From an uncultured Acetatifactor sp. (GTDB lineage: Bacteria; Bacillota; Clostridia; Lachnospirales; Lachnospiraceae): a stretch of DNA of 64,000 nt. Each line of letters starts with the position of its first letter. Within the stretch, counting starts at the first letter, position 1. A program made the position numbers and the translations under genes. The DNA is taken from assembly GCA_947589075.1 (NCBI GenBank), contig CANQBS010000004.1:1-64000 (forward strand), in the 5' to 3' direction. Positions 3,764-64,000 of this stretch are shown in pieces. Under the pieces are notes generated by a model, which was not told where the DNA came from, searched no databases, and was given only the letters and a program-made list of their open reading frames with translations.

Positions 3764-4342
3764 TCAGGATATTTCGAACTGGCGGACCCGCTTTCTTACC
3801 TGTGCACCTGTCAGGACTGCAAGGAACAGCTTTATGATCTCTCCGGGAAGATAGGGGATCACTCCTGCCCAAAGGGCGGCGTAAAAGCTGTAGTGAGCCA
3901 GATAAGCCAGCCACAGGGTTCCGAACAGGAAAAGGAGAACAGATCCAAACAGGATTCCGATCACATGCATAACGGGTTTGTTGGGGAAATGGTCTATGAA
4001 AAAGCCCCCCAAAAGCGCCAGGAAAATGTAGCCGATGAGGTATCCCCCGGTGGGACCCAGCGCTTTTCCGATCCCTCCGGTGAAGCCGGTAAATACCGGG
4101 GCTCCGGCGATCCCCAGCAGAAGGTAGATCAGAACGCTGATGGTACCCCTTTTCATGCCGGACACATAGACTACGAAGTAGACGGCCAGGGTTCCCAGGG
4201 ATATGGGGACCAGATGCATGGGAAGGGGAATGGAAACAGGACCCAGGATACAGATCACTGCGGTCATCAGACCTGTGAGCGCCAGCTCATGGGTCTTTTC
4301 TTTGGAGGGTGTTTTGGTGGGGGATGGGGTGGAAGTTTTCAT
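3764..4342 (-). CDS. bioY: BioY-family biotin transporter substrate-specificity component
   Basis: 192 aa; GPVSIPLPMHLVPISLGTLAVYFVVYVSGMKRGTISVLIYLLLGIAGAPVFTGFTGGIGKALGPTGGYLIGYI is typical of BioY. Confidence 0.92.
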   Translation of the reverse strand: MKTSTPSPTKTPSKEKTHELALTGLMTAVICILGPVSIPLPMHLVPISLGTLAVYFVVYVSGMKRGTISVLIYLLLGIAGAPVFTGFTGGIGKALGPTGGYLIGYIFLALLGGFFIDHFPNKPVMHVIGILFGSVLLFLFGTLWLAYLAHYSFYAALWAGVIPYLPGEIIKLFLAVLTGAQVRKRVRQFEIS

Positions 4343-4432
4343 GGGGGTCTCCTTTTTTTAATTGGTTTTAGGTGGACGGGTGATCGGGGGTTTGTGATCA
4401 CCTGTTTTATTAGTATATAGGAAAGAAAAGAG

Positions 4433-4466
4433 ATTGTCAACTATTAATATATAATTAGTTGACAAT
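4433..4466. promoter_or_regulatory. BirA-type operator upstream of bioY
   Basis: Perfect 10-bp inverted repeat ATTGTCAACT-N14-AGTTGACAAT about 90 bp upstream of the bioY start; architecture matches BirA sites (TTGT.AAC-N14/15-GTT.ACAA). Confidence 0.75.
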
Positions 4467-4537
4467 TAAATCAACATTAAATCAAACATATCAAACAATT
4501 AATTGCAGCAGGACGGCGGGACCGGGCATGATAAAAG

Positions 4538-4580
4538 AACCGCCGGACCTTTGGGGTTCGGCGGAGCGGTGATTTTGTTT
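4538..4580 (-). terminator. Rho-independent terminator downstream of prs
   Basis: CCGCCGGACC...GGTTCGGCGG stem, followed on the minus strand by TTCTTTT. Confidence 0.7.
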
Positions 4581-4609
4581 TCAGTTTATGAATTTTACAA
4601 TTTTTTCTC

Positions 4610-5794
4610 TTACAGTTCTCCGTTCTTGTATCTGGCAACGATGTTTTGGATCCTTTCATTGGGGTTCAGCAGGTCGCTGATGGAAGAGTCGTGGTTCAGG
4701 GTGTCGATGATGTAGGCGATGTATTTGCTCATGTCGCAGTTGATGTACCATTCTCTCTGGAGGAGATCGGGAGTCTGGTATACCAGGTTGGTGGTGAGAA
4801 CCCTGGTGATGGTGCCGTCCCTGTATGCCGCGTCAAACTTGTCCAGTCCGTTGGTGAACAGTCCAAAGGTGGAGAAAACGAAGATTTTGGCGGCCTTGCG
4901 CTTTTTCAGTTCTCTGGCCACCTCCAGTACGCTGTCTCCGGAGGATATCATATCGTCGATGATGATCATATCCTTGCCTTCCACGCTGGAACCGAGGAAT
5001 TCGTGGGCCACAATGGGATTGCGTCCATTTACGATCTTGGTATAGTCCCTGCGCTTGTAGAACATTCCCATGTCCAGGCCCAGAACGTTGGCGATGTAGA
5101 TCGCCCGGCTCATACCGCCCTCGTCGGGGCTGATCACCATCATATGGCTGGAATCCAGCTGCAGGCCCTTTACGTTGCGTAAGAGTCCTTTGATAAACTG
5201 GTATGCGGGCCGCACCGTTTCAAAGCCATGGAGGGGGATCGCGTTCTGTACTCTGGGGTCGTGGGCGTCGAAGGTGATGATGTTGTCCACGCCCATGCGG
5301 ACCAGCTCCTGCAGGGCCAGGGCACAGTCCAGGGATTCTCTGGAGGTTCTCTTATGCTGGCGGCTTTCATACAGGAAGGGCATGATCACGGTGATGCGCC
5401 TTGCCTTGCCGCCCACAGCGGAAATCACACGTTTCAGATCCTGGTAATGGTCGTCAGGGGACATCCTGTTCTCGTGGCCGCAAAGCCGGTAGGTGAGGCT
5501 GTAGTTGCAGACATCCACCAGAAGATAAAGGTCGAAGCCCCGGGCAGATTCCATGATCATGCCCTTTGCCTCCCCGGAACCGAAACGGGGCACCTTGGCG
5601 TTCATCAGGTAAGAAGGGCGCTGATAGCCGGAAAAAGCAAGGGAATCCTTGTGCTCATTTTCCCGCTCTGTTCTCCATTTTACAAGATACTGGTCGATTT
5701 TTTCTCCGATGGGCTTGCAGCTCTCTAAGGCAATGATGCCCAAAGAGCCTACAGGAATGGTCTCCAGATTCCGTTTTTCTTCGCGGTTGGCCAT
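4610..5794 (-). CDS. prs: Ribose-phosphate pyrophosphokinase
   Basis: 394 aa; RRITVIMPFLYESRQHKRTSRESLDCALALQEL and DMIIIDDMISSGDS (PRPP motif). Confidence 0.92.
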   Translation of the reverse strand: MANREEKRNLETIPVGSLGIIALESCKPIGEKIDQYLVKWRTERENEHKDSLAFSGYQRPSYLMNAKVPRFGSGEAKGMIMESARGFDLYLLVDVCNYSLTYRLCGHENRMSPDDHYQDLKRVISAVGGKARRITVIMPFLYESRQHKRTSRESLDCALALQELVRMGVDNIITFDAHDPRVQNAIPLHGFETVRPAYQFIKGLLRNVKGLQLDSSHMMVISPDEGGMSRAIYIANVLGLDMGMFYKRRDYTKIVNGRNPIVAHEFLGSSVEGKDMIIIDDMISSGDSVLEVARELKKRKAAKIFVFSTFGLFTNGLDKFDAAYRDGTITRVLTTNLVYQTPDLLQREWYINCDMSKYIAYIIDTLNHDSSISDLLNPNERIQNIVARYKNGEL

Positions 5795-54801: not shown

Positions 54802-54848
54802 AGATTTCGGACGATTTGTCCGGAGTCCTTTTTCTAATCTGTTATTGA

Positions 54849-55076
54849 GAAAATAACAACGTGGTAACGGAATGATAATAGAAAATTATTGCTTTTTCTG
54901 TTAAAACACTGCATAATAAAATAGAATAGATCAAGTGAAAAATGCAGGAAGAGGTAATTGGATTGAAAAATATAATCCAACTGGATTCATATCCGGTGCA
55001 GGCAACGCTGAGAATACTTTTGCAGGATAAAACGACAAAAAAATGAATTATTCCGTAATTCAGCCGCGAATATCAA
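54849..55076 (+). repeat. Partial direct duplication of the upstream region and 5' end of the 56587 gene
   Basis: 54871-55036 nearly identical to 56516-56682, then resumes at the sequence matching about 56777-56810 after an internal deletion between A-tracts. Confidence 0.9.
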
Positions 55077-55139: not shown

Positions 55140-56334
55140 ATGCCATATTTTGAATATAACCAAACTGTAAAAAATGTTGAATATTACGAAATCCTTGAAA
55201 ATCTCATGGAACGCTGGGAATATGAGATTGTTGAGTTTAAGGAAGCTAAAAGCAGCTATGATACAGACAAAATAGGCAGATATTTTTCCGCAATCAGCAA
55301 CGAAGCGAATCTGCACCAACAACAATACGGCTGGCTTGTTTTCGGCGTTGGCGAGGAACTTGTTTCAGTCTGCACCGAGTATTATGTGGAGATTATATGG
55401 TGCTGACAATATGGATAGGGATTATGCGATTTTCAAAATTCCATTTATCAATGTGGTAGATAAGGTTTTTGCAAAAGTAAGAAATCTGACATACAGGTAT
55501 ATGCCGAATCAGATGACATTGTTTCCGATGGAAACGGAGCAGTATGACAGTTGGCTGATGCGAGAGCTGCTTAACAACTGCATTGCACATACGAATTATC
55601 AGTTAGGCGGAAGGATCTATGTTGATGAATTTGAGGATAAGCTTAAATTTAGTAATCCAGGCGATTTTATTCCGCAGAAAATTGAGAATGTTTTGGAGGT
55701 AAGCTACCGACCGCCATATTATAGGAATAAACTATTAGCAGATACAATGATGGCATTTCATATGATAGAAACTGCATCATTTGGTATTCGGCGGGCATAC
55801 AATATTCAGAAAGCAAAATATTTTCCGATGCCAGATTATGATGTTAATTCTGGGACACATGTTGAAGTTACGATATATGGGAAGATCCTAAACGATAGTT
55901 ACATGCATATATTGTATGATCATCAGGATATGGATTTGCAGACGGTGTTTTTGCTTGACCGGATACAGAAAGGATTACCAGTAGAAAAGGAGGATGTGGA
56001 CAAACTACGTAGTCAAAAATTGGTAGAGGGTAGATCGACGAGTTTGTACTTATCTGCGTCAGCAGCACAAAGCATTGATAAAAGCGCTGCTTATATTAAA
56101 AACAAAGGGTTTGATGACAAGTATTATAAAGATTTGATTGTTGAGTATTTGAGGAAGTATGGAAAGGCAAAAAAGAAAGATATTCGGGAATTGCTTTGGG
56201 AAAAGCTGCCGGATGCGTTGTCAGATGCTCAAAAAGAGCATAAAGTCAGTAATTTATTGGCAGCGTTAAAGAAAGCTTATATTATTGACACAGATTCATC
56301 AAATCAGCAACGCTCGTATTGGGTATTGAAATAA
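55140..56334 (+). pseudogene. Decayed AlbA_2/Schlafen-like ATP-binding protein gene
   Basis: N-terminal AlbA_2-like region (EIVEFKEAKSSYDTDKIGRYFSAISNEANLHQQQYGWLVFGVG) in one frame; C-terminal part (MRELLNNCIAHTNYQLGGRIYVDEFEDKLKFSNPGDF, winged-helix C-terminus) in another; middle segment missing. Confidence 0.75.
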
Positions 56335-56444: not shown

Positions 56445-56480
56445 AAGGACTTCGGATTATTTATCCGAAGTCCTTTTTTA
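56445..56480 (+). terminator. Rho-independent terminator after the AlbA_2 pseudogene
   Basis: AAGGACTTCGGAT-tattt-ATCCGAAGTCCTT then T-tract; perfect 13-bp stem. Confidence 0.85.
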
Positions 56481-56586
56481 AACCTTTTTTTGCAACAATA
56501 GCAGCGTGATAACAGAATGATAATAGAAAATTATTGCTTTTTCTGTTAAAACACTGCATAATAAAATAGAATAGATCAAGTGAAAA

Positions 56587-57546
56587 ATGCAGGAAGAGGT
56601 AATTGGATTGGAAAATATAATCCAACTGGATTCATATCCGGTGCAGGCAACGCTGAGAATACTTTTGCAGGATAAAACGACTAAAAAAAATATTATATGG
56701 GCGACAGATTCCTATGCCTCTTTTGGGGAGGCATACACAGATAGAAGTCAGATTACAGAAGATCAACTAAAAAAAATGAATTATTCCATAATTCAGCCGC
56801 GAATATCAAAAGATATGGAGCAACAAACACAGCGCACCAGAAAGAGTGCGGAGGTTTTTACTCCTGCCTGGCTTTGCAATAAGATGAATAATTTCTGTGA
56901 TGAGGAATGGTTTGGTTACAAAGATGTTTTTAACCGACAGGCTGAACATGAATGGATTCCTATAGAAAATAATATAAGATTTCCTGATGGGAAGGATTGG
57001 AAAGAATACATAGATTCTAAACGATTGGAAATTACATGCGGAGAAGCGCCTTATCTGGTTTCAAGGTATGATGTTTCCACTGGTAAGATGATTGATATTC
57101 CTAAGCGAGTTGGACTTCTTGACAGAAAACTCCGTGTTGTGAATGAAAATGCGACAGATGAATCAGAATGGATGAAGTGGGTGATTCGGGCATTTCAGAG
57201 CGTGTATGGATATGAATATCAAGGGGATAATTTATTGATTGCACGCATCAACTTGTTGATGACATTTGTTGATTATATGAATTACAAGTGGCACAGACAG
57301 CCAGGGAAAGCAGAACTTCGGAAGATCGCTAACATTATTAGCTGGAATATTTGGCAGATGGATGGACTGAAAGGAACAGTCCCTATAGGTATTTTAAAAG
57401 AGGAATATCATCAGATGTCGTTGTTTGAATTGTTTCAGGAGAAAGAAGAACAGGATGATGTGTCGGAAGTAAGGTGTAGGGTATATGATTGGCGGGCAAA
57501 TAGTTCTATTTTATACGAGACATTGGAGATAAACAGGAGGTATTGA
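56587..57546 (+). CDS. Restriction-modification-associated protein (subunit M-like), N-terminal half of an adenine methyltransferase
   Basis: RKSAEVFTPAWLCNKMNN (motif X-like) and LEITCGEAPYLVSRYD (motif I-like); no NPPY in this ORF. Confidence 0.7.
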   Translation: MQEEVIGLENIIQLDSYPVQATLRILLQDKTTKKNIIWATDSYASFGEAYTDRSQITEDQLKKMNYSIIQPRISKDMEQQTQRTRKSAEVFTPAWLCNKMNNFCDEEWFGYKDVFNRQAEHEWIPIENNIRFPDGKDWKEYIDSKRLEITCGEAPYLVSRYDVSTGKMIDIPKRVGLLDRKLRVVNENATDESEWMKWVIRAFQSVYGYEYQGDNLLIARINLLMTFVDYMNYKWHRQPGKAELRKIANIISWNIWQMDGLKGTVPIGILKEEYHQMSLFELFQEKEEQDDVSEVRCRVYDWRANSSILYETLEINRRY

Positions 57547-57551
57547 GCTTT

Positions 57552-57725
57552 ATGAATGATTACGAAAAACAGAAAGAGCATTATGACAAGGCTATGGAGA
57601 AGCTGATTGAGGCAGAAAAAGAGTTTCAAGAATTAACACCAGAGAACAAAGAGAAATATGTGGATCAAGTGCTTAGAATGTATGGAATGTCTGAAGTATT
57701 AAATATGTTTAAAAACCGAAGGTAG
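57552..57725 (+). CDS. Small hypothetical protein of the R-M-like operon
   Basis: MNDYEKQKEHYDKAMEKLIEAEKEF..., coiled-coil-like; just after the upstream ORF stop. Confidence 0.5.
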   Translation: MNDYEKQKEHYDKAMEKLIEAEKEFQELTPENKEKYVDQVLRMYGMSEVLNMFKNRR

Positions 57726-57730
57726 AGAAA

Positions 57731-58456
57731 ATGGCATTTAGTGAAGATATAAAAACAAAAGCTATGATTTCATGTGGAAGATGTTGTTGCATTTGTCATA
57801 AGTTTTGTGGAAATAACATGGAGGTACACCATATTAAAGCGCAGGCAGACGGTGGCGACAATTCTTTTGAGAATGCAATACCATTATGTTTTGACTGTCA
57901 CGCAATAGTACGACAATATGATCCAAGGCATCCTAAAGGAATAAAATTTTCGGAAAAGGAACTTATTCAACACAGGGATGCTTGGTATAAACATATACAG
58001 AAGGGGAATCAGGAAACCGAAAAGCAAAACAAATCAAATGAAGTTAAACCAATTAGAATTTATCATCAAAAGGGATATAAGGACATTGTACTGAATAAAG
58101 TTTCTAATGGCAAAGAAATGTTAAGGTATTTGATAGGAGCTTATGGGATTGTTTATGATGAGGAGGCAGAAACACTAGAAGAGGTAAAACTAATAGGTGA
58201 ATTTATACAGAGCATAAAAGAATTAGTGGATTTTGACGATTTATTAGATGAGCCCTATGACAGAATCATGACAGCGTTTAATCTAACTGAGAGTATTAAA
58301 GAATTAGGCGAAGCAGGGTTTTGGGTTTTTGTAGGAAAAGAGGATAGGGTAATAACAGGTGGTATAAAGGAACCAGAAATATGTCCAACATTATTAGTGC
58401 GTGTTGTTAGAAAAGACAGTAGTGAAATTATAAAAGTGAATTTTAAAGATGAGTAA
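57731..58456 (+). CDS. HNH endonuclease-domain protein
   Basis: CGRCCCICHKFCGNNMEVHHIKAQADGGDNSFENAIPLCFDCHAIV (Cys-coordinated HNH); C-terminal half unrecognised. Confidence 0.85.
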   Translation: MAFSEDIKTKAMISCGRCCCICHKFCGNNMEVHHIKAQADGGDNSFENAIPLCFDCHAIVRQYDPRHPKGIKFSEKELIQHRDAWYKHIQKGNQETEKQNKSNEVKPIRIYHQKGYKDIVLNKVSNGKEMLRYLIGAYGIVYDEEAETLEEVKLIGEFIQSIKELVDFDDLLDEPYDRIMTAFNLTESIKELGEAGFWVFVGKEDRVITGGIKEPEICPTLLVRVVRKDSSEIIKVNFKDE

Positions 58457-58493: not shown

Positions 58494-59528
58494 ATGAAAT
58501 TCGATTATATAATAGGTAATCCGCCATATCAGGATGAAACAATTGGGGATAATAAAGGATATGCGCCGCCGGTATATCATAAATTCCTTGAAAATGCCTA
58601 TAAGATTGGTGATGTGGTAGAAATGATACATCCTGCCAGATTTTTGTTTAATGCAGGGAGTACACCGAAACAATGGAATGAACAGATGCTGAAAGATCCG
58701 CATCTCAAAGTACTATATTTTGAACAGGACAGCAGTAAAGTATTTAGTAATACGGATATTAAAGGCGGCGTAGTTATTACATATCATAATAACGCGAAAG
58801 AATATGGTGCAATCGGAACTTTTACGGCATATAACGAATTGAACACAATACTGAGAAAAGTGAGAAACCATACATCCTTTTCAAGCTTTAGCAATATAGT
58901 TGTTACCCGTACTGCCTATCGTTTAACGGATAAAATGCATCAAGATTATCCGGAAGCAATTGGACAATTAAGTGATGGACATGCCTATGATATGTCTACA
59001 AATATATTTGAGAGATTACCGCAGATATTTTTTGATGAAAAACCACAAGACGGAGCAGAGTATATACAGATTTTAGGACGTGAAAATAATGAACGAGTAT
59101 ATAAGTATGTAAAGCGTGATTATATTAATACAGTTATTAATCTGAATAAATATAAAATATTTTTGCCAAAGGCAAATGGAATTGGAGTATTAGGGGAAGT
59201 ATTGTCGGCTCCTATATTATGCGAACCAATGATAGGTGCAACAGAAACATTTTTAAGTATTGGAGCATTTGAACAAAAGAGTGAGGCAGAGGCGGTCTTG
59301 AAGTATATTAAGACAAAATTTGCCCGTGCATTGCTGGGAGTTTTGAAGACCACGCAAGATATTACACCGGAAAAATGGAAATGTGTTCCCATGCAGGATT
59401 TCACCTGTTTTTCAGATATTGACTGGTCAGCTACAATAGCAAACATAGATCGGCAGCTTTATGCAAAATATGGTTTGGATGAGAATGAGATCAATTTCAT
59501 TGAATCACATGTAAAGGAGATGGAATAA
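58494..59528 (+). CDS. Adenine-specific methyltransferase half (Eco57I-like) beginning at NPPY motif IV
   Basis: MKFDYIIGNPPYQDETIGDNKGYAPPVYHKFLENAYKIGDVVEMIHPARFLF; no motif I in this ORF; C-terminal TRD-like region. Confidence 0.8.
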   Translation: MKFDYIIGNPPYQDETIGDNKGYAPPVYHKFLENAYKIGDVVEMIHPARFLFNAGSTPKQWNEQMLKDPHLKVLYFEQDSSKVFSNTDIKGGVVITYHNNAKEYGAIGTFTAYNELNTILRKVRNHTSFSSFSNIVVTRTAYRLTDKMHQDYPEAIGQLSDGHAYDMSTNIFERLPQIFFDEKPQDGAEYIQILGRENNERVYKYVKRDYINTVINLNKYKIFLPKANGIGVLGEVLSAPILCEPMIGATETFLSIGAFEQKSEAEAVLKYIKTKFARALLGVLKTTQDITPEKWKCVPMQDFTCFSDIDWSATIANIDRQLYAKYGLDENEINFIESHVKEME

Positions 59529-59529
59529 G

Positions 59530-62500
59530 ATGAGCAATGCACCAAAGATTCAGTCTTTTACCCATGTGGTTCCGATGATCTATGCCTACAATACGCCGGG
59601 TGTAACCTACCATGATGGCTGGACAAAGATTGGCTATACGGAGAAACAGTCGGTTTCTCAAAGGCTGAACCAACAGACGCATACTGCTGGCATCAAGTGG
59701 GTACTGGCATGGCAGGATAATGCTATGTATAAGGACGGTTCGGGTGAATATTTCACAGACAGGGATTTTCACACATTTTTGGAGTCGGATCTGGATGTAG
59801 AGCGGGCGCCCGGAACGGAATGGTTCCATGTGGACGCGAAGGCATCTCAGGATTATTTCAATACCTTTTCCAGACGGGAAAGGGTAGAGAAAAATGAGGA
59901 AAAGAGTACATATGCTTTGCGAAAAGAGCAGCAGGAAGCTGTCGATATGACAAAGCAATATTTTGAAAATGGCGGAACGGAATTTCTGTGGAATGCGAAA
60001 CCGAGATTTGGAAAAACGCTGGCGTCTTATGATCTTGTGTGCCGGATGGGATTTAGCAAGGTGTTGATCGTTACCAACAGACCGAGTATAGCGAATTCAT
60101 GGGCGGATGATTTCCGGAAATTTATCGGCTGGAGGGGAGAGTTCTGTTTTGTCTCCGATACAGATGCCCTGAATGGGAAATCTGGCGTTATGTCGAGAAA
60201 TGAATATACGAAAGCAATGTTAGTTAAGAATGAAAAAGAACAGAAAGGCATGGTTGCATTTGAATCTCTGCAGGGGTTAAAAGGTTCGGTTTACTTTGGA
60301 GGGGAGTATGATAAATTAAAGTGGATCCGCGAGCTGGAATTTGATCTGTTGATTGTGGACGAGGCGCAGGAAGGTGTTGACACAATGCGCACGGACAGGG
60401 CTTTTCGCAATATTTCCAGAAAGCACACCCTGTATCTGTCAGGAACGCCTTTTAAGGCGCTGGCAAGTGAACAATTTGCAGAAAATCAGATTTTTAACTG
60501 GTCTTATGCAGATGAGCAGGCAGCGAAAGAAAGATGGGATGGCGAGGATTACAATCCCTATGAGGCGCTGCCTCGGCTTGCCATGTATACTTACCAGTTG
60601 TCCAATATGATCTATGACCGGATTGAAAAAGGCATGGAACTTCCGGAAAGTGAGGAAAGCGTTGACTATGCTTTTGACTTAAATGAATTCTTTATGACAA
60701 ATGAATACGGTAAATTTATACATGAGAAAGAAATCCGCAAATTTCTTCATGCGCTGGTTACACAGGAGAAATATCCTTTTTCTACGCCGGAACTTCGGGA
60801 AGAATTGTCTCATACTTTGTGGCTGTTGAACCGTGTGAACAGTGCAAAAGCATTAGCAAAGATATTGAAAGAAGATGAAGTGTTTCAGGATTACCACGTG
60901 ATTTTGGCTGCCGGAGACGGGCGAATGGAAGATGAAGAAGCGGCGGAGGCTGCATTTGATAAGGTGAGAGCGGCGGTCACGGAATATGATAAGACCATTA
61001 CATTGAGCGTTGGGCAGCTTACAGTGGGCGTTACGATTCCTGAATGGAGCGGTGTGTTGATGCTCTGCAATATGAAAAGTCCTTCTTCCTATATGCAGGC
61101 GGCATTTCGTGCGCAAAATCCCTGTATCCTAACCAGAAACAGGAAGCGTTATCGCAAAGAAACGGCGTATATTTTTGATTTTGATCCGGCGAGAACGCTT
61201 ATTGTTTTTGATGAGTTTGCAAACAATTTATCGGTCAATACCGTTAGCGGTCGTGGGACGGGAGAGGAAAGAAAAGATAATATTAAACGGCTGCTTAACT
61301 TTTTCCCGGTATTGGGCGAGGATGAAGAAGGCAGAATGGTAGAACTGGACGCGGCTTCCGTTCTTTCCATTCCAAGAAAGATCAAGAGTCAGGAAGTGGT
61401 ACGGAGAGGCTTTTTGTCTAATTTTCTGTTTCAAAATATTAGCAATGTATTTGGTGCGCCGAGCGTTGTAAGGGAGATTGTAGAAAAATTGGCGCCAGCC
61501 CATGAAGAACAGAAGAAAAACAGGAAAGATGTCTTAGAAGAAATTTCCAATGTGACAGTTGATGAAGATGGGGAAGTCGCGATCTCCAATGAAATTGTGA
61601 TAGGAAAAACACAGGAACTGTTTGGCAGGAAAGTATATGAACGAATGTCCGAAGATCTGCAGGAACATGTAAATGCGGTTGCCGAAAGCAGCGTATATGA
61701 AGTGGACAGAAAATTAAAAACATTGGTAGACAGCATAAAAGGAACTGTGAAGCAGAACGTTTTTGCCCCTGTAATGAACGAATACGATGTAAAAAAAGGG
61801 ATACAGAATCGTCTGGAAAGGCAGATTGACAATGAGATCGAGAATACCTTTGCCAAAATCCAAGGCGATTATAAGCAGCAGGCGATGATTGCCAGGACAG
61901 AGTTTGAAAGGAAGCAGAAAGAAGCCGAGACAGAGCAGGAAATACAAGCGGCAGAGGTGGAATTTCAGTCGAGCATGGACGAGGCAATGTTTGCTTTTGT
62001 TAAGACGGTTCAGGACAGTGTACAGAAAACGATTGAAGATAAGCCAAAAGATCTGATGGAACAATTGGAACGCCGCAAAGCCGAGCAGGAGAAAAGAACA
62101 GTCGAGGAGGAAGTCAGGGCACATTTGCGCGGTTTTTCCCGCACGATCCCAAGCTTTATCATGGCTTACGGGGACGGTAATCTGACGCTTGCCAATTTTG
62201 ACGACTATACGGAAGATGATGTGTTCCTTGAAGTGACGGGGATTACGGAAGATGATTTCCGTTTCCTGCGGGACGGCGGCGAGTATGAAAACCCTGAGAC
62301 TGGAGAAAAGGAATATTTTGCAGGGCATCTGTTTGACGAGGTGGTTTTTAATGATTCCATAGAGGAATTTTGGAAGAAAAAAGAGCTGCTTGCCAATTAT
62401 TTTGATGAAACTTTGGAAGAAGATATTTTTGATTATATACCGCCGCAGAAGACGAACCAGATCTTTACGCCGAGATGGATAGTGGTAAAGATGGTGGACG

Positions 62501-62859
62501 AGCTGGAAGCAAACAATCCGGGATGCTTTGATGATCCGGATAAAACATTTGCGGATCTGTATATGAAATCAGGACTTTATATAACAGAGATCGTAAAGCG
62601 GTTATATCGCAGCGAGGCGATTAAGGCTGTGTATCCGGACGATAAAGAACGCATCCGCCATATTCTGCAGAAGCAGGTGTATGGGATGGCGCCAACTCGT
62701 ATTATTTATTTAATTGCTATAAATTATATCCTAGGCTTTGATAAGGAGCTGAAAGCGGAAACACATAATTTTGTGGAGGCAGATGCTGCGGAGGCGGCAA
62801 AAGAAGGGAAGCTGGAAGAATTGGTGGAGAAGTGGTTTGGCAGTGATAAATCGATTTAA
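59530..62859 (+). CDS. GIY-YIG-like nuclease / DEAD-box-type helicase / partial methyltransferase fusion
   Basis: N-term PMIYAYNTPG...WTKIGYTEKQSVSQRLNQQ; NAKPRFGKTLASYDLV, LIVDEAQEGVDT, YLSGTPFKAL, SYMQAAFRAQNP; C-term QIFTPRWIVVKMVDELE...FADLYMKSGLYITEIVKRLY...QVYGMAPTRIIYLIAINYILGF. Confidence 0.8.
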   Translation: MSNAPKIQSFTHVVPMIYAYNTPGVTYHDGWTKIGYTEKQSVSQRLNQQTHTAGIKWVLAWQDNAMYKDGSGEYFTDRDFHTFLESDLDVERAPGTEWFHVDAKASQDYFNTFSRRERVEKNEEKSTYALRKEQQEAVDMTKQYFENGGTEFLWNAKPRFGKTLASYDLVCRMGFSKVLIVTNRPSIANSWADDFRKFIGWRGEFCFVSDTDALNGKSGVMSRNEYTKAMLVKNEKEQKGMVAFESLQGLKGSVYFGGEYDKLKWIRELEFDLLIVDEAQEGVDTMRTDRAFRNISRKHTLYLSGTPFKALASEQFAENQIFNWSYADEQAAKERWDGEDYNPYEALPRLAMYTYQLSNMIYDRIEKGMELPESEESVDYAFDLNEFFMTNEYGKFIHEKEIRKFLHALVTQEKYPFSTPELREELSHTLWLLNRVNSAKALAKILKEDEVFQDYHVILAAGDGRMEDEEAAEAAFDKVRAAVTEYDKTITLSVGQLTVGVTIPEWSGVLMLCNMKSPSSYMQAAFRAQNPCILTRNRKRYRKETAYIFDFDPARTLIVFDEFANNLSVNTVSGRGTGEERKDNIKRLLNFFPVLGEDEEGRMVELDAASVLSIPRKIKSQEVVRRGFLSNFLFQNISNVFGAPSVVREIVEKLAPAHEEQKKNRKDVLEEISNVTVDEDGEVAISNEIVIGKTQELFGRKVYERMSEDLQEHVNAVAESSVYEVDRKLKTLVDSIKGTVKQNVFAPVMNEYDVKKGIQNRLERQIDNEIENTFAKIQGDYKQQAMIARTEFERKQKEAETEQEIQAAEVEFQSSMDEAMFAFVKTVQDSVQKTIEDKPKDLMEQLERRKAEQEKRTVEEEVRAHLRGFSRTIPSFIMAYGDGNLTLANFDDYTEDDVFLEVTGITEDDFRFLRDGGEYENPETGEKEYFAGHLFDEVVFNDSIEEFWKKKELLANYFDETLEEDIFDYIPPQKTNQIFTPRWIVVKMVDELEANNPGCFDDPDKTFADLYMKSGLYITEIVKRLYRSEAIKAVYPDDKERIRHILQKQVYGMAPTRIIYLIAINYILGFDKELKAETHNFVEADAAEAAKEGKLEELVEKWFGSDKSI

Positions 62860-62951
62860 TATATGGGAGATTTAGGAGAATGTTTTGTCTAAGATAATAG
62901 TTGGGTACATATTTATATTCCCCAGAAAGCAAATGAAGGGAGATAGTGAAG

Positions 62952-64000
62952 TTGAAAAAAGATTTTGGCCTTTCACAGTTTGATGAATACCGAGAAGATA
63001 ATCGCCGAGAAGTAAAGAAGGCAAGCGCTGGTTTGCCAATTTCTCTTTGGGATACCTATTCTGCCTTTGCAAATTGCTATGGCGGGGTTATTATTCTTGG
63101 CGTTAAAGAAGAAAAAGACGGAAATTGGACAACTACCGGACTGCGGAATGCGTCAAAGCTTCGCAAAGATTTCTGGGACACGATCAACAATCCCAAGAAA
63201 GTAAGCATCAACTTGTTGTCAGAAGATGATGTTCAGATCTATGAAGTGGGTGATAAGAAAGATGTTATCATGGTGATCTATGTGCCGATGGCAAAGCGGG
63301 AGCAGAAGCCGATATATATATCAATAATGATATTTTTAATGGCACGTTCCGCCGAAACTATGAGGGTGACTATCATTGTACCAGACTGCAGGTAAAAGCG
63401 ATGCTTCGGGATCAAACGGAGCGCACAATGGACATGGAAGTGCTGGACAAGGTGCCTATGGACGATCTGAACTATGATACGATTCATGGTTATAGAAACA
63501 GCCACCGCTCGTTGAAAGAGGGGCATCTGTTTGAACGCCTGAGCGATCACGAATATTTGAGAAGTATCGGTGCGGCTGCAATTTCTGAGGAAGACGGACA
63601 ACTGCATCCCACAACAGCGGGTATGCTGATGTTTGGAGATGAGTATAATATCGTGCGTCATTTCCCAGAGTATTTCCTGGATTATAGGGAGGAATTAGAT
63701 CCTACCACCCGCTGGAGCGACAGATTGCAGTCCAGTTCCGGTGAGTGGTCTGGAAATGTGTGCGATTTTTATTTCAGAGTCTATAATAAAATTATCAAAG
63801 ATGTCAAAGTGCCGTTCAAGATGTCCGGCGGAGAACGCATTGACGATACTCCGGTACACAAGGCGCTTCGTGAAGCTTTGGCAAATTGTTTGATTCATGC
63901 AGACTATCATGGCTTGCGTGGTATCGTGATTAGAAAAGAAACTGACAAGCTGATTTTGGCAAATCCCGGTTATATCAGGACCGGCAAAAAGCAGATGCGT
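62952..64000 (+). pseudogene. AlbA_2-type ATP-binding protein, frameshifted at an (AT)5 tract; continues beyond the window
   Basis: Frame 1 encodes ...VPMAKREQKPIYIS then runs out of frame; removing one AT gives QKPIYINNDIFNGTFRRNYEGDYHCTRLQVKAMLRDQ... open to the window end (...KLILANPGYIRTGKKQMR). Confidence 0.8.

What the first reader, a model, noticed from the sequence alone, without database searches (positions are those of the whole stretch)
62430..62859. Helicase C-terminus carries a second motif X/I-like methyltransferase half
The last ~140 aa of the 1109-aa protein (QKTNQIFTPRWIVVKMVDELE...DPDKTFADLYMKSGLYITEIVKRLYR...VYGMAPTRIIYLIAINYIL) read like motifs X, I and III of an N6-adenine methyltransferase, again with no NPPY. 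The locus therefore appears to hold two motif-I halves (this and 56587) and one NPPY half (58494). This raises the question of which half pairs with the NPPY subunit, or whether one is a regulatory decoy. The degenerate motif I (LYMKSGLYITEI) may bind SAM poorly.
Basis: partly seen in the sequence, partly recalled or inferred. Interest (0 to 1): 0.7.

Follow-up and report, generated by a model that had tools for sequence, protein, structure and literature searches.

The report
Rearranged split-methyltransferase restriction system
This is a bacterial restriction system whose DNA methyltransferase is divided over three proteins; the piece on the helicase tail is a methyltransferase half that has lost its cofactor-binding signature in every relative yet is kept by strong selection, while a neighbouring protein carries the real cofactor-binding half.

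Summary
Residues ~966-1109 of the 1109-aa GIY-YIG/helicase protein (HC) are the N-terminal half (motifs X, I, II, III) of an N6-adenine methyltransferase, ending where motif IV (NPPY) would follow. HC matches the N-half of M2.DrdVI (hhalign 99.4%, E=1e-20; controls <1%) and folds confidently (pLDDT 88). The locus is a DrdVI-like 'split methylase' system: A (56587, = M1), N (58494, = C-half of M2 plus specificity domain) and H-HC (59530), recovered in about 100 loci. The SAM signature separates cleanly: motif I intact in all 102 readable A, degraded (mostly DLYMKSG) in all 107 readable HC; motif II acid in at least 95 A, in no HC. N is fused to A in 49 loci and to HC or its sister form in 11; the latter looks ancestral. 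HC has dN/dS 0.037, below the helicase's 0.079, so it is no relic. N, from NPPY onward, is swapped wholesale between near-identical A/H backbones. Best reading: A binds SAM, N supplies NPPY and specificity, HC is a SAM-dead socket coupling N to the motor. The geometry is unproven. New variant of a known kind.

The parts
56587..57546 (+). A (319 aa): M1-like SAM-binding half of the methyltransferase. Motif X AEVFTP 56848-56886, motif I RLEITCGEAPYL 57022-57072, motif II VYGYE 57202-57258, motif III 57331-57369; no NPPY
   Evidence: PADLOC MTase_II PDLC03390 E=3e-105; long A to short A/M1 hhalign 99.9%, E=4e-30; fused to N in 49 loci; coordinates
57543..57725 (+). small ORF (60 aa) in the A-N gap, probably cargo, not part of the conserved core
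   Evidence: absent from relatives where A and N abut
57731..58456 (+). HNH-domain protein (241 aa) inserted between A and N; cargo at a hotspot, not part of the conserved core
   Evidence: Pfam HNH E=2e-6; other loci carry other genes here
58494..59528 (+). N (344 aa): catalytic half starting at motif IV (MKFDYIIGNPPYQ, 58494-58532), motifs V-VIII and the C-terminal target recognition part; = C-half of M2.DrdVI type proteins
   Evidence: Pfam Eco57I positions 73-171 only, E=6e-16; PADLOC PDLC03375 and PDLC03626 1011-1359; swapped as a block
59530..62859 (+). H-HC (1109 aa): GIY-YIG-like N-terminus (59578-59640, Glu in TEWF 59815-59826), SF2 helicase (Walker A PRFGKT 60001-60018, VDEAQ 60355-60369), coiled region, and the HC half
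   Evidence: Pfam ResIII E=4e-10; T5orf172 (GIY-YIG clan) in 7 of 11 relatives though not in this copy itself
62428..62859 (+). HC: SAM-dead methyltransferase N-half at the C-terminus of the helicase. Motif X 62455-62508, degraded motif I TFADLYMKSGLYI 62545-62607, motif II without its acid QVYGMAP 62674-62733, motif III 62764-62802

Best explanation
The locus is an ATP-dependent restriction-modification system of the DrdVI 'split methylase' kind, rearranged. Step 1 (strong inference from sequence): A binds S-adenosylmethionine. Step 2 (inference): A and N together make the m6A methyltransferase, N giving NPPY and DNA specificity. Step 3 (shown by comparison): HC is the former N-half of M2, moved onto the tail of the GIY-YIG helicase, with its SAM signature lost but under strong purifying selection. 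Step 4 (inference): HC is a structural socket that still recognises its old partner N, or the A-N pair, and so ties site recognition to the helicase and nuclease; unmodified sites trigger translocation and cutting. Step 5 (shown): N is an exchangeable module, replaced from the NPPY motif to near its C-terminus while A and H stay, so specificity changes for methylation and cutting at once.
For: SAM signature split: canonical motif I (E-[PILV]-x-[CA]-G-x-[AG]) in 102 of 102 readable A; in HC no glycine at the first glycine position in any of 107 readable sequences and proline in 2. Motif II Y-G-x-[E/D] in at least 95 of 102 A; Y-G-x-A-P or similar, never acidic, in 108 HC. M2 of DrdVI and relatives also has K at the first glycine and no motif II acid, whereas its M1 has FLEPACGSGNFL. 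A-N fused in 49 loci, A, N and H separate in 44, H-HC-N in one chain in 11. In the fused forms the Pfam Eco57I domain runs across both the A/N junction (L031) and the HC/N junction (L028), and window N alone starts at Eco57I position 73. M1+M2 methylate when cloned together (DrdVI GCAGCC, PMC6430315; MaeIV GCACY, PMC10113651). HC dN/dS 0.037 against helicase 0.079. Block swap of N with sharp 5' border at GNPPY.
Against: No experiment on this branch. Distances of N given the helicase correlate better with HC (partial r 0.37) than with A (0.11), though neither passes within-cluster permutation (76 and 271 of 500). The motif III to IV spacing is about 35 aa, canonical, in an HC-N chain (L139) but about 75 aa in A-N chains, so HC-N may be the older structural pair. 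The AlphaFold2 A-N model is confident (pLDDT 83.8, pTM 0.81) and finds N6-adenine methyltransferases in the PDB, but with TM only 0.28-0.38 on the query, and no coordinates or PAE were available to see whether A and N share one sheet.
Confidence: 0.68

Rival explanations
1. Toggle: A and HC are alternative partners for the single C-half N. A-N is methylation-competent, HC-N is methylation-dead and restriction-competent, so the same specificity module is handed between a methyltransferase and a motor-nuclease.
For: A and HC end at the same point of the fold (after motif III) and N starts at motif IV; N is naturally fused to either.
Against: In fused forms N is tied to one partner yet the other is always kept where readable, which suits a ternary complex at least as well. 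No structural test of exclusive binding.
Confidence: 0.2
2. HC-N forms the canonical methyltransferase sheet, as in the ancestral M2, and A docks beside it, delivering SAM or acting allosterically as a pseudo-dimer partner.
For: Ancestral-looking HC-N contiguity (M2 type and basal branches), canonical spacing, slightly better HC-N co-divergence.
Against: HC and the M2 N-half lack two SAM-contact signatures everywhere; repeated A-N fusions in the window's clade and none of HC-N there.
Confidence: 0.25
3. HC is a decaying relic of M2 left on the helicase after the C-half moved away.
For: Motif I is degenerate.
Against: Strongest purifying selection in the protein together with the GIY domain (dN/dS 0.037 and 0.042); same degenerate motif in loci of several phyla.
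Confidence: 0.03

Closest known systems
DrdVI restriction-modification system (Deinococcus wulumuqiensis NEB 479, plasmid pDrdVI; M1-2.DrdVI, GCAGCC, 6mA, Type IIG in REBASE) and MaeIV (GCACY)
   Same: Same three building blocks: a short SAM-half protein (M1 = A), an NPPY/specificity part (M2 C-half = N) and a GIY-YIG helicase; same operon logic; M2 N-half homologous to HC
   Different: In DrdVI the HC-type half sits in M2 in front of NPPY, and the helicase (859 aa) ends without it. Here HC is on the helicase, N stands alone, and HC has lost more of motif I
GIY-YIG helicase H-HC-N single chains of Enterococcus, Lactococcus, Pediococcus plasmids with a separate 'N-6 DNA methylase' (NCBI: Eco57I restriction-modification methylase domain-containing protein; PADLOC REase_MTase_IIG PDLC03626)
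   Same: All domains, same degraded HC, same intact A next door
   Different: N fused behind HC, as opposed to upstream and free
Type ISP enzymes LlaGI and LlaBIII
   Same: Order nuclease, SF2 helicase, methyltransferase, specificity domain in the fused branch; HC plus the preceding segment is the best Foldseek match
   Different: Mrr nuclease in place of GIY-YIG, one polypeptide with its own methyltransferase (abstract of PMC4666363); no A subunit
CglI/NgoAVII three-gene systems
   Same: Separate methyltransferase and DEAD-family ATPase working with a nuclease, asymmetric site (PMC4267653)
   Different: Nuclease is a separate R protein; no split methyltransferase or HC-like half described in what was read

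Membership tests
DrdVI-type split methylase RM | M1: separate N-half with intact motif I and no NPPY | tested here: met
   P0001
DrdVI-type split methylase RM | M2: one chain with X/I-type half followed by NPPY and specificity domain | tested here: not met
   The two parts are separate genes, HC on the helicase and N upstream
DrdVI-type split methylase RM | GIY-YIG plus SF2 helicase protein in the same operon | tested here: met
   ResIII in P0003; T5orf172 in 7 of 11 relatives, motif residues present in P0003 although it gives no Pfam hit itself
DrdVI-type split methylase RM | m6A at an asymmetric site made by M1+M2 | not testable with these tools
   Known for DrdVI and MaeIV from papers only
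Type ISP | single polypeptide carrying all activities | tested here: not met
   Three genes
Type ISP | Mrr-family nuclease at the N-terminus | tested here: not met
   T5orf172/GIY-YIG-like in the family
Type ISP | SF2 helicase followed by coupler and methyltransferase | tested here: inconclusive
   Helicase yes; HC model best matches LlaBIII/LlaGI over about 250 columns but E only 4e-4, TM 0.39, and only half a methyltransferase is there
N6-adenine methyltransferase, functional SAM site in HC | motif I glycines and motif II acid | tested here: not met
   0 of 107 readable HC with the first glycine, none with the motif II acid

The most novel reading that the evidence does not exclude
A two-state switch built on one shared C-half: N pairs alternately with a SAM-binding half (A, methylate) and a SAM-dead half on the motor (HC, restrict), so recognition and catalysis are passed between enzymes by exchanging half of a protein fold.
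Probability: 0.18. Interest if true: 0.85.

Novelty: new variant of a known kind. Interest (0 to 1): 0.55.

Why it matters
It gives a sequence-based answer to which half of a split methyltransferase binds the cofactor in the DrdVI family, predicts that M1, not M2, is the SAM subunit of characterised enzymes such as DrdVI and MaeIV, and shows a methyltransferase half kept for a non-catalytic job on a helicase. The exchangeable unit here is the catalytic half together with the specificity domain, which makes the family a natural test bed for re-targeting both methylation and cutting. Half-domains that change fusion partner also make the general question of how restriction is coupled to methylation directly testable.

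Tried and rejected
Direct Pfam, NCBIfam and PDB sequence searches find no methyltransferase in P0001 or in HC; the link needed profiles and PADLOC. A joint AlphaFold2 of HC with N was prepared on the natural HC-N chain L139, but the alignment A3 put the HC rows in the wrong place and was not used; HC alone was folded instead. Correlating replacement of long by short A with divergence of N or HC gave nothing (permutation p 0.27-0.40). Mirror-type distances: HC-N 0.37, A-N 0.11, neither significant. Rejected: chance match, relic HC, an intact SAM site in HC, membership in Type ISP.

Full report
Anatomy. Three genes form the conserved core on the + strand: A (56587-57546, 319 aa), N (58494-59528, 344 aa) and H-HC (59530-62859, 1109 aa), with N ending two bases before H starts. 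N begins with MKFDYIIGNPPYQ, that is at motif IV, and matches Pfam Eco57I only from profile position 73 of 171. A carries motifs X, I, II and III and stops before motif IV. HC, the last ~144 residues of H, carries the same four motifs and also stops before motif IV.

Is HC really a methyltransferase half? Yes. The HC profile aligns with the N-half of M2.DrdVI and its relatives at 99.4% probability (E=1e-20, 150 columns) and with short A/M1 proteins at 95.9% (E=3e-9). Other regions of the same protein and column-shuffled alignments stay below 1%. Its AlphaFold2 model is confident (pLDDT 88.4, pTM 0.84) with strands at motifs I, II and III. Foldseek puts Type ISP enzymes first (E 4e-4) and CamA next. 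The E-values are modest because only half a fold is searched.

Relatives. Searches of species genomes, viral contigs and plasmids gave about 120 helicase-bearing loci. Counted by a script: A-N fused with H-HC separate, 49; A, N and H-HC separate, 44 (41 in the order A, N, H, and 3 with N after H); A with H-HC-N in one chain, 11, of which six belong to a sister form with motif ILEINSKTG; N and H seen but A not, 13, most of them cut by contig ends or broken; incomplete, 2. Some 'separate' cases are frameshifts, so the fusion counts are approximate.

Known relatives. One branch is the DrdVI system on plasmid pDrdVI: M1 (212 aa, FLEPACGSGNFL, no NPPY), M2 (539 aa, with FLDPCTKSGVFL and then NPPYQ) and a GIY-YIG helicase of 859 aa without HC. 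The assignment of these three genes to DrdVI is by the plasmid and by PMC6430315, which lists M1-2.DrdVI, GCAGCC, 6mA; PMC4996451 describes M1.DrdVI, M2.DrdVI and DrdVI as a fused translocase and REase with a GIY-YIG domain in its homologue. PMC10113651 speaks of a family of split methylase genes similar to DrdVI and shows that M1-M2.MaeIV methylates GCACY in E. coli. The same M1-M2-helicase order is seen on plasmids of Rhizobium, Acuticoccus, Variovorax, Sphingopyxis, Mycobacteroides and Mycolicibacterium.

Where is SAM bound? In A the canonical motif I is present in 102 of 102 readable sequences, in two forms (E[IL]TCGEA and EP[SA][AC]GxG), and the motif II acid in at least 95. In HC the motif reads D-L-Y-M-K-S-G in 95 of 107 readable sequences and never has the first glycine; the motif II acid is never present. 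The aspartate and last glycine of motif I are invariant in HC, so the fold is kept. M2 of the DrdVI type already has lysine at the first glycine and no motif II acid. The simplest reading is that M1/A is the SAM subunit in the whole family. This is inference from signature residues; no binding was measured.

Evolution. On a helicase tree rooted on the DrdVI type, the HC-N chains and the loci with N after H are basal, and all loci with N upstream of H, including the window, lie in one clade; N moved once on the best tree, but that branch has support of only 53 to 94 depending on the rows used. Within the clade A-N fusion or separation changed at least 14 times by parsimony, an upper estimate in biology because of frameshifts. 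HC-N fusion is not seen in that clade. HC is nevertheless under the strongest constraint: dN/dS against the nearest relative L059 is 0.037 for HC, 0.042 GIY, 0.079 helicase, 0.155 coiled region.

N is an exchangeable module. In the pairs L078/L081, L063/L094, L069/L126, L132/L134 and L034/L035, A is 90-97% and the helicase 89-97% identical in DNA, but N only 59-65%. In the four pairs profiled the drop begins at the GNPPY codons and ends near the C-terminus of N. The window and L059 show the same: N and A at 61-67%, H at 89-90%, with a sharp border in the last ~50 bases of N. TRD exchange is well known in other RM types (domain movement papers); here the exchanged block holds the catalytic half too.

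Mechanism. I commit to A-N as the methyltransferase with SAM on A, and HC as a SAM-dead socket that couples N or A-N to the motor. Shown: homology, motif distribution, fusions, selection, block exchange. Inferred: that A and N share one active site, that HC touches N, and that HC links recognition to cleavage. Points against are kept open: HC-N has the canonical motif III-IV spacing and slightly better co-divergence, and the A-N model could not be inspected in space.

Verdict. The system is a new variant of the DrdVI split-methylase kind, not a new class; REBASE-derived PADLOC profiles already cover its pieces. I found no paper in the held library that describes the SAM-dead half on the helicase or the exchange of N, but that library is partial.

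Noticed in passing
window 54803-55076: A 91% direct duplicate (249 bp) of 56448-56696, the upstream region and first 37 codons of A, plus a 40-bp piece matching 56770-56809: a truncated, decayed second A start 1.6 kb upstream.
   Followed up: partly
window 55140-56334 and 62946-64000: Schlafen/AlbA-type genes flank the system on both sides; each reads as two overlapping or abutting frames, so each looks frameshifted. Parts of both recur in other genomes of the genus without the RM genes.
   Followed up: partly
window 57543-58456; also L060, L076, L091, L128, L136 between A and N: The A-N gap is an insertion hotspot: HNH protein in the window; elsewhere, by eye, DinD-like, PIN, DUF262, Rpn-like and MNT/HEPN-like genes.
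   Followed up: partly
L134:1949-2988 (-) and 4185-5207 (+): A second, inverted and apparently broken N copy upstream of A; its ends share imperfect inverted repeats (56 nt 75%, 39 nt 79%) with the active N, which suggests a possible inversion switch of specificity.
   Followed up: partly
L026, L028, L098, L103, L105, L110, L116, L122, L128 and others: A comes in a long (about 310 aa, CGEAP) and a short (about 250 aa, EPSAGEGAF) form that replace each other between branches without visible change in N or HC.
   Followed up: partly
L038-L045, L026, L029: Sister form of the H-HC-N chain with motif ILEINSKTGLYP in place of FADLYMKSGLYI, also accompanied by an intact A: a second, different loss of the SAM motif.
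   Followed up: partly
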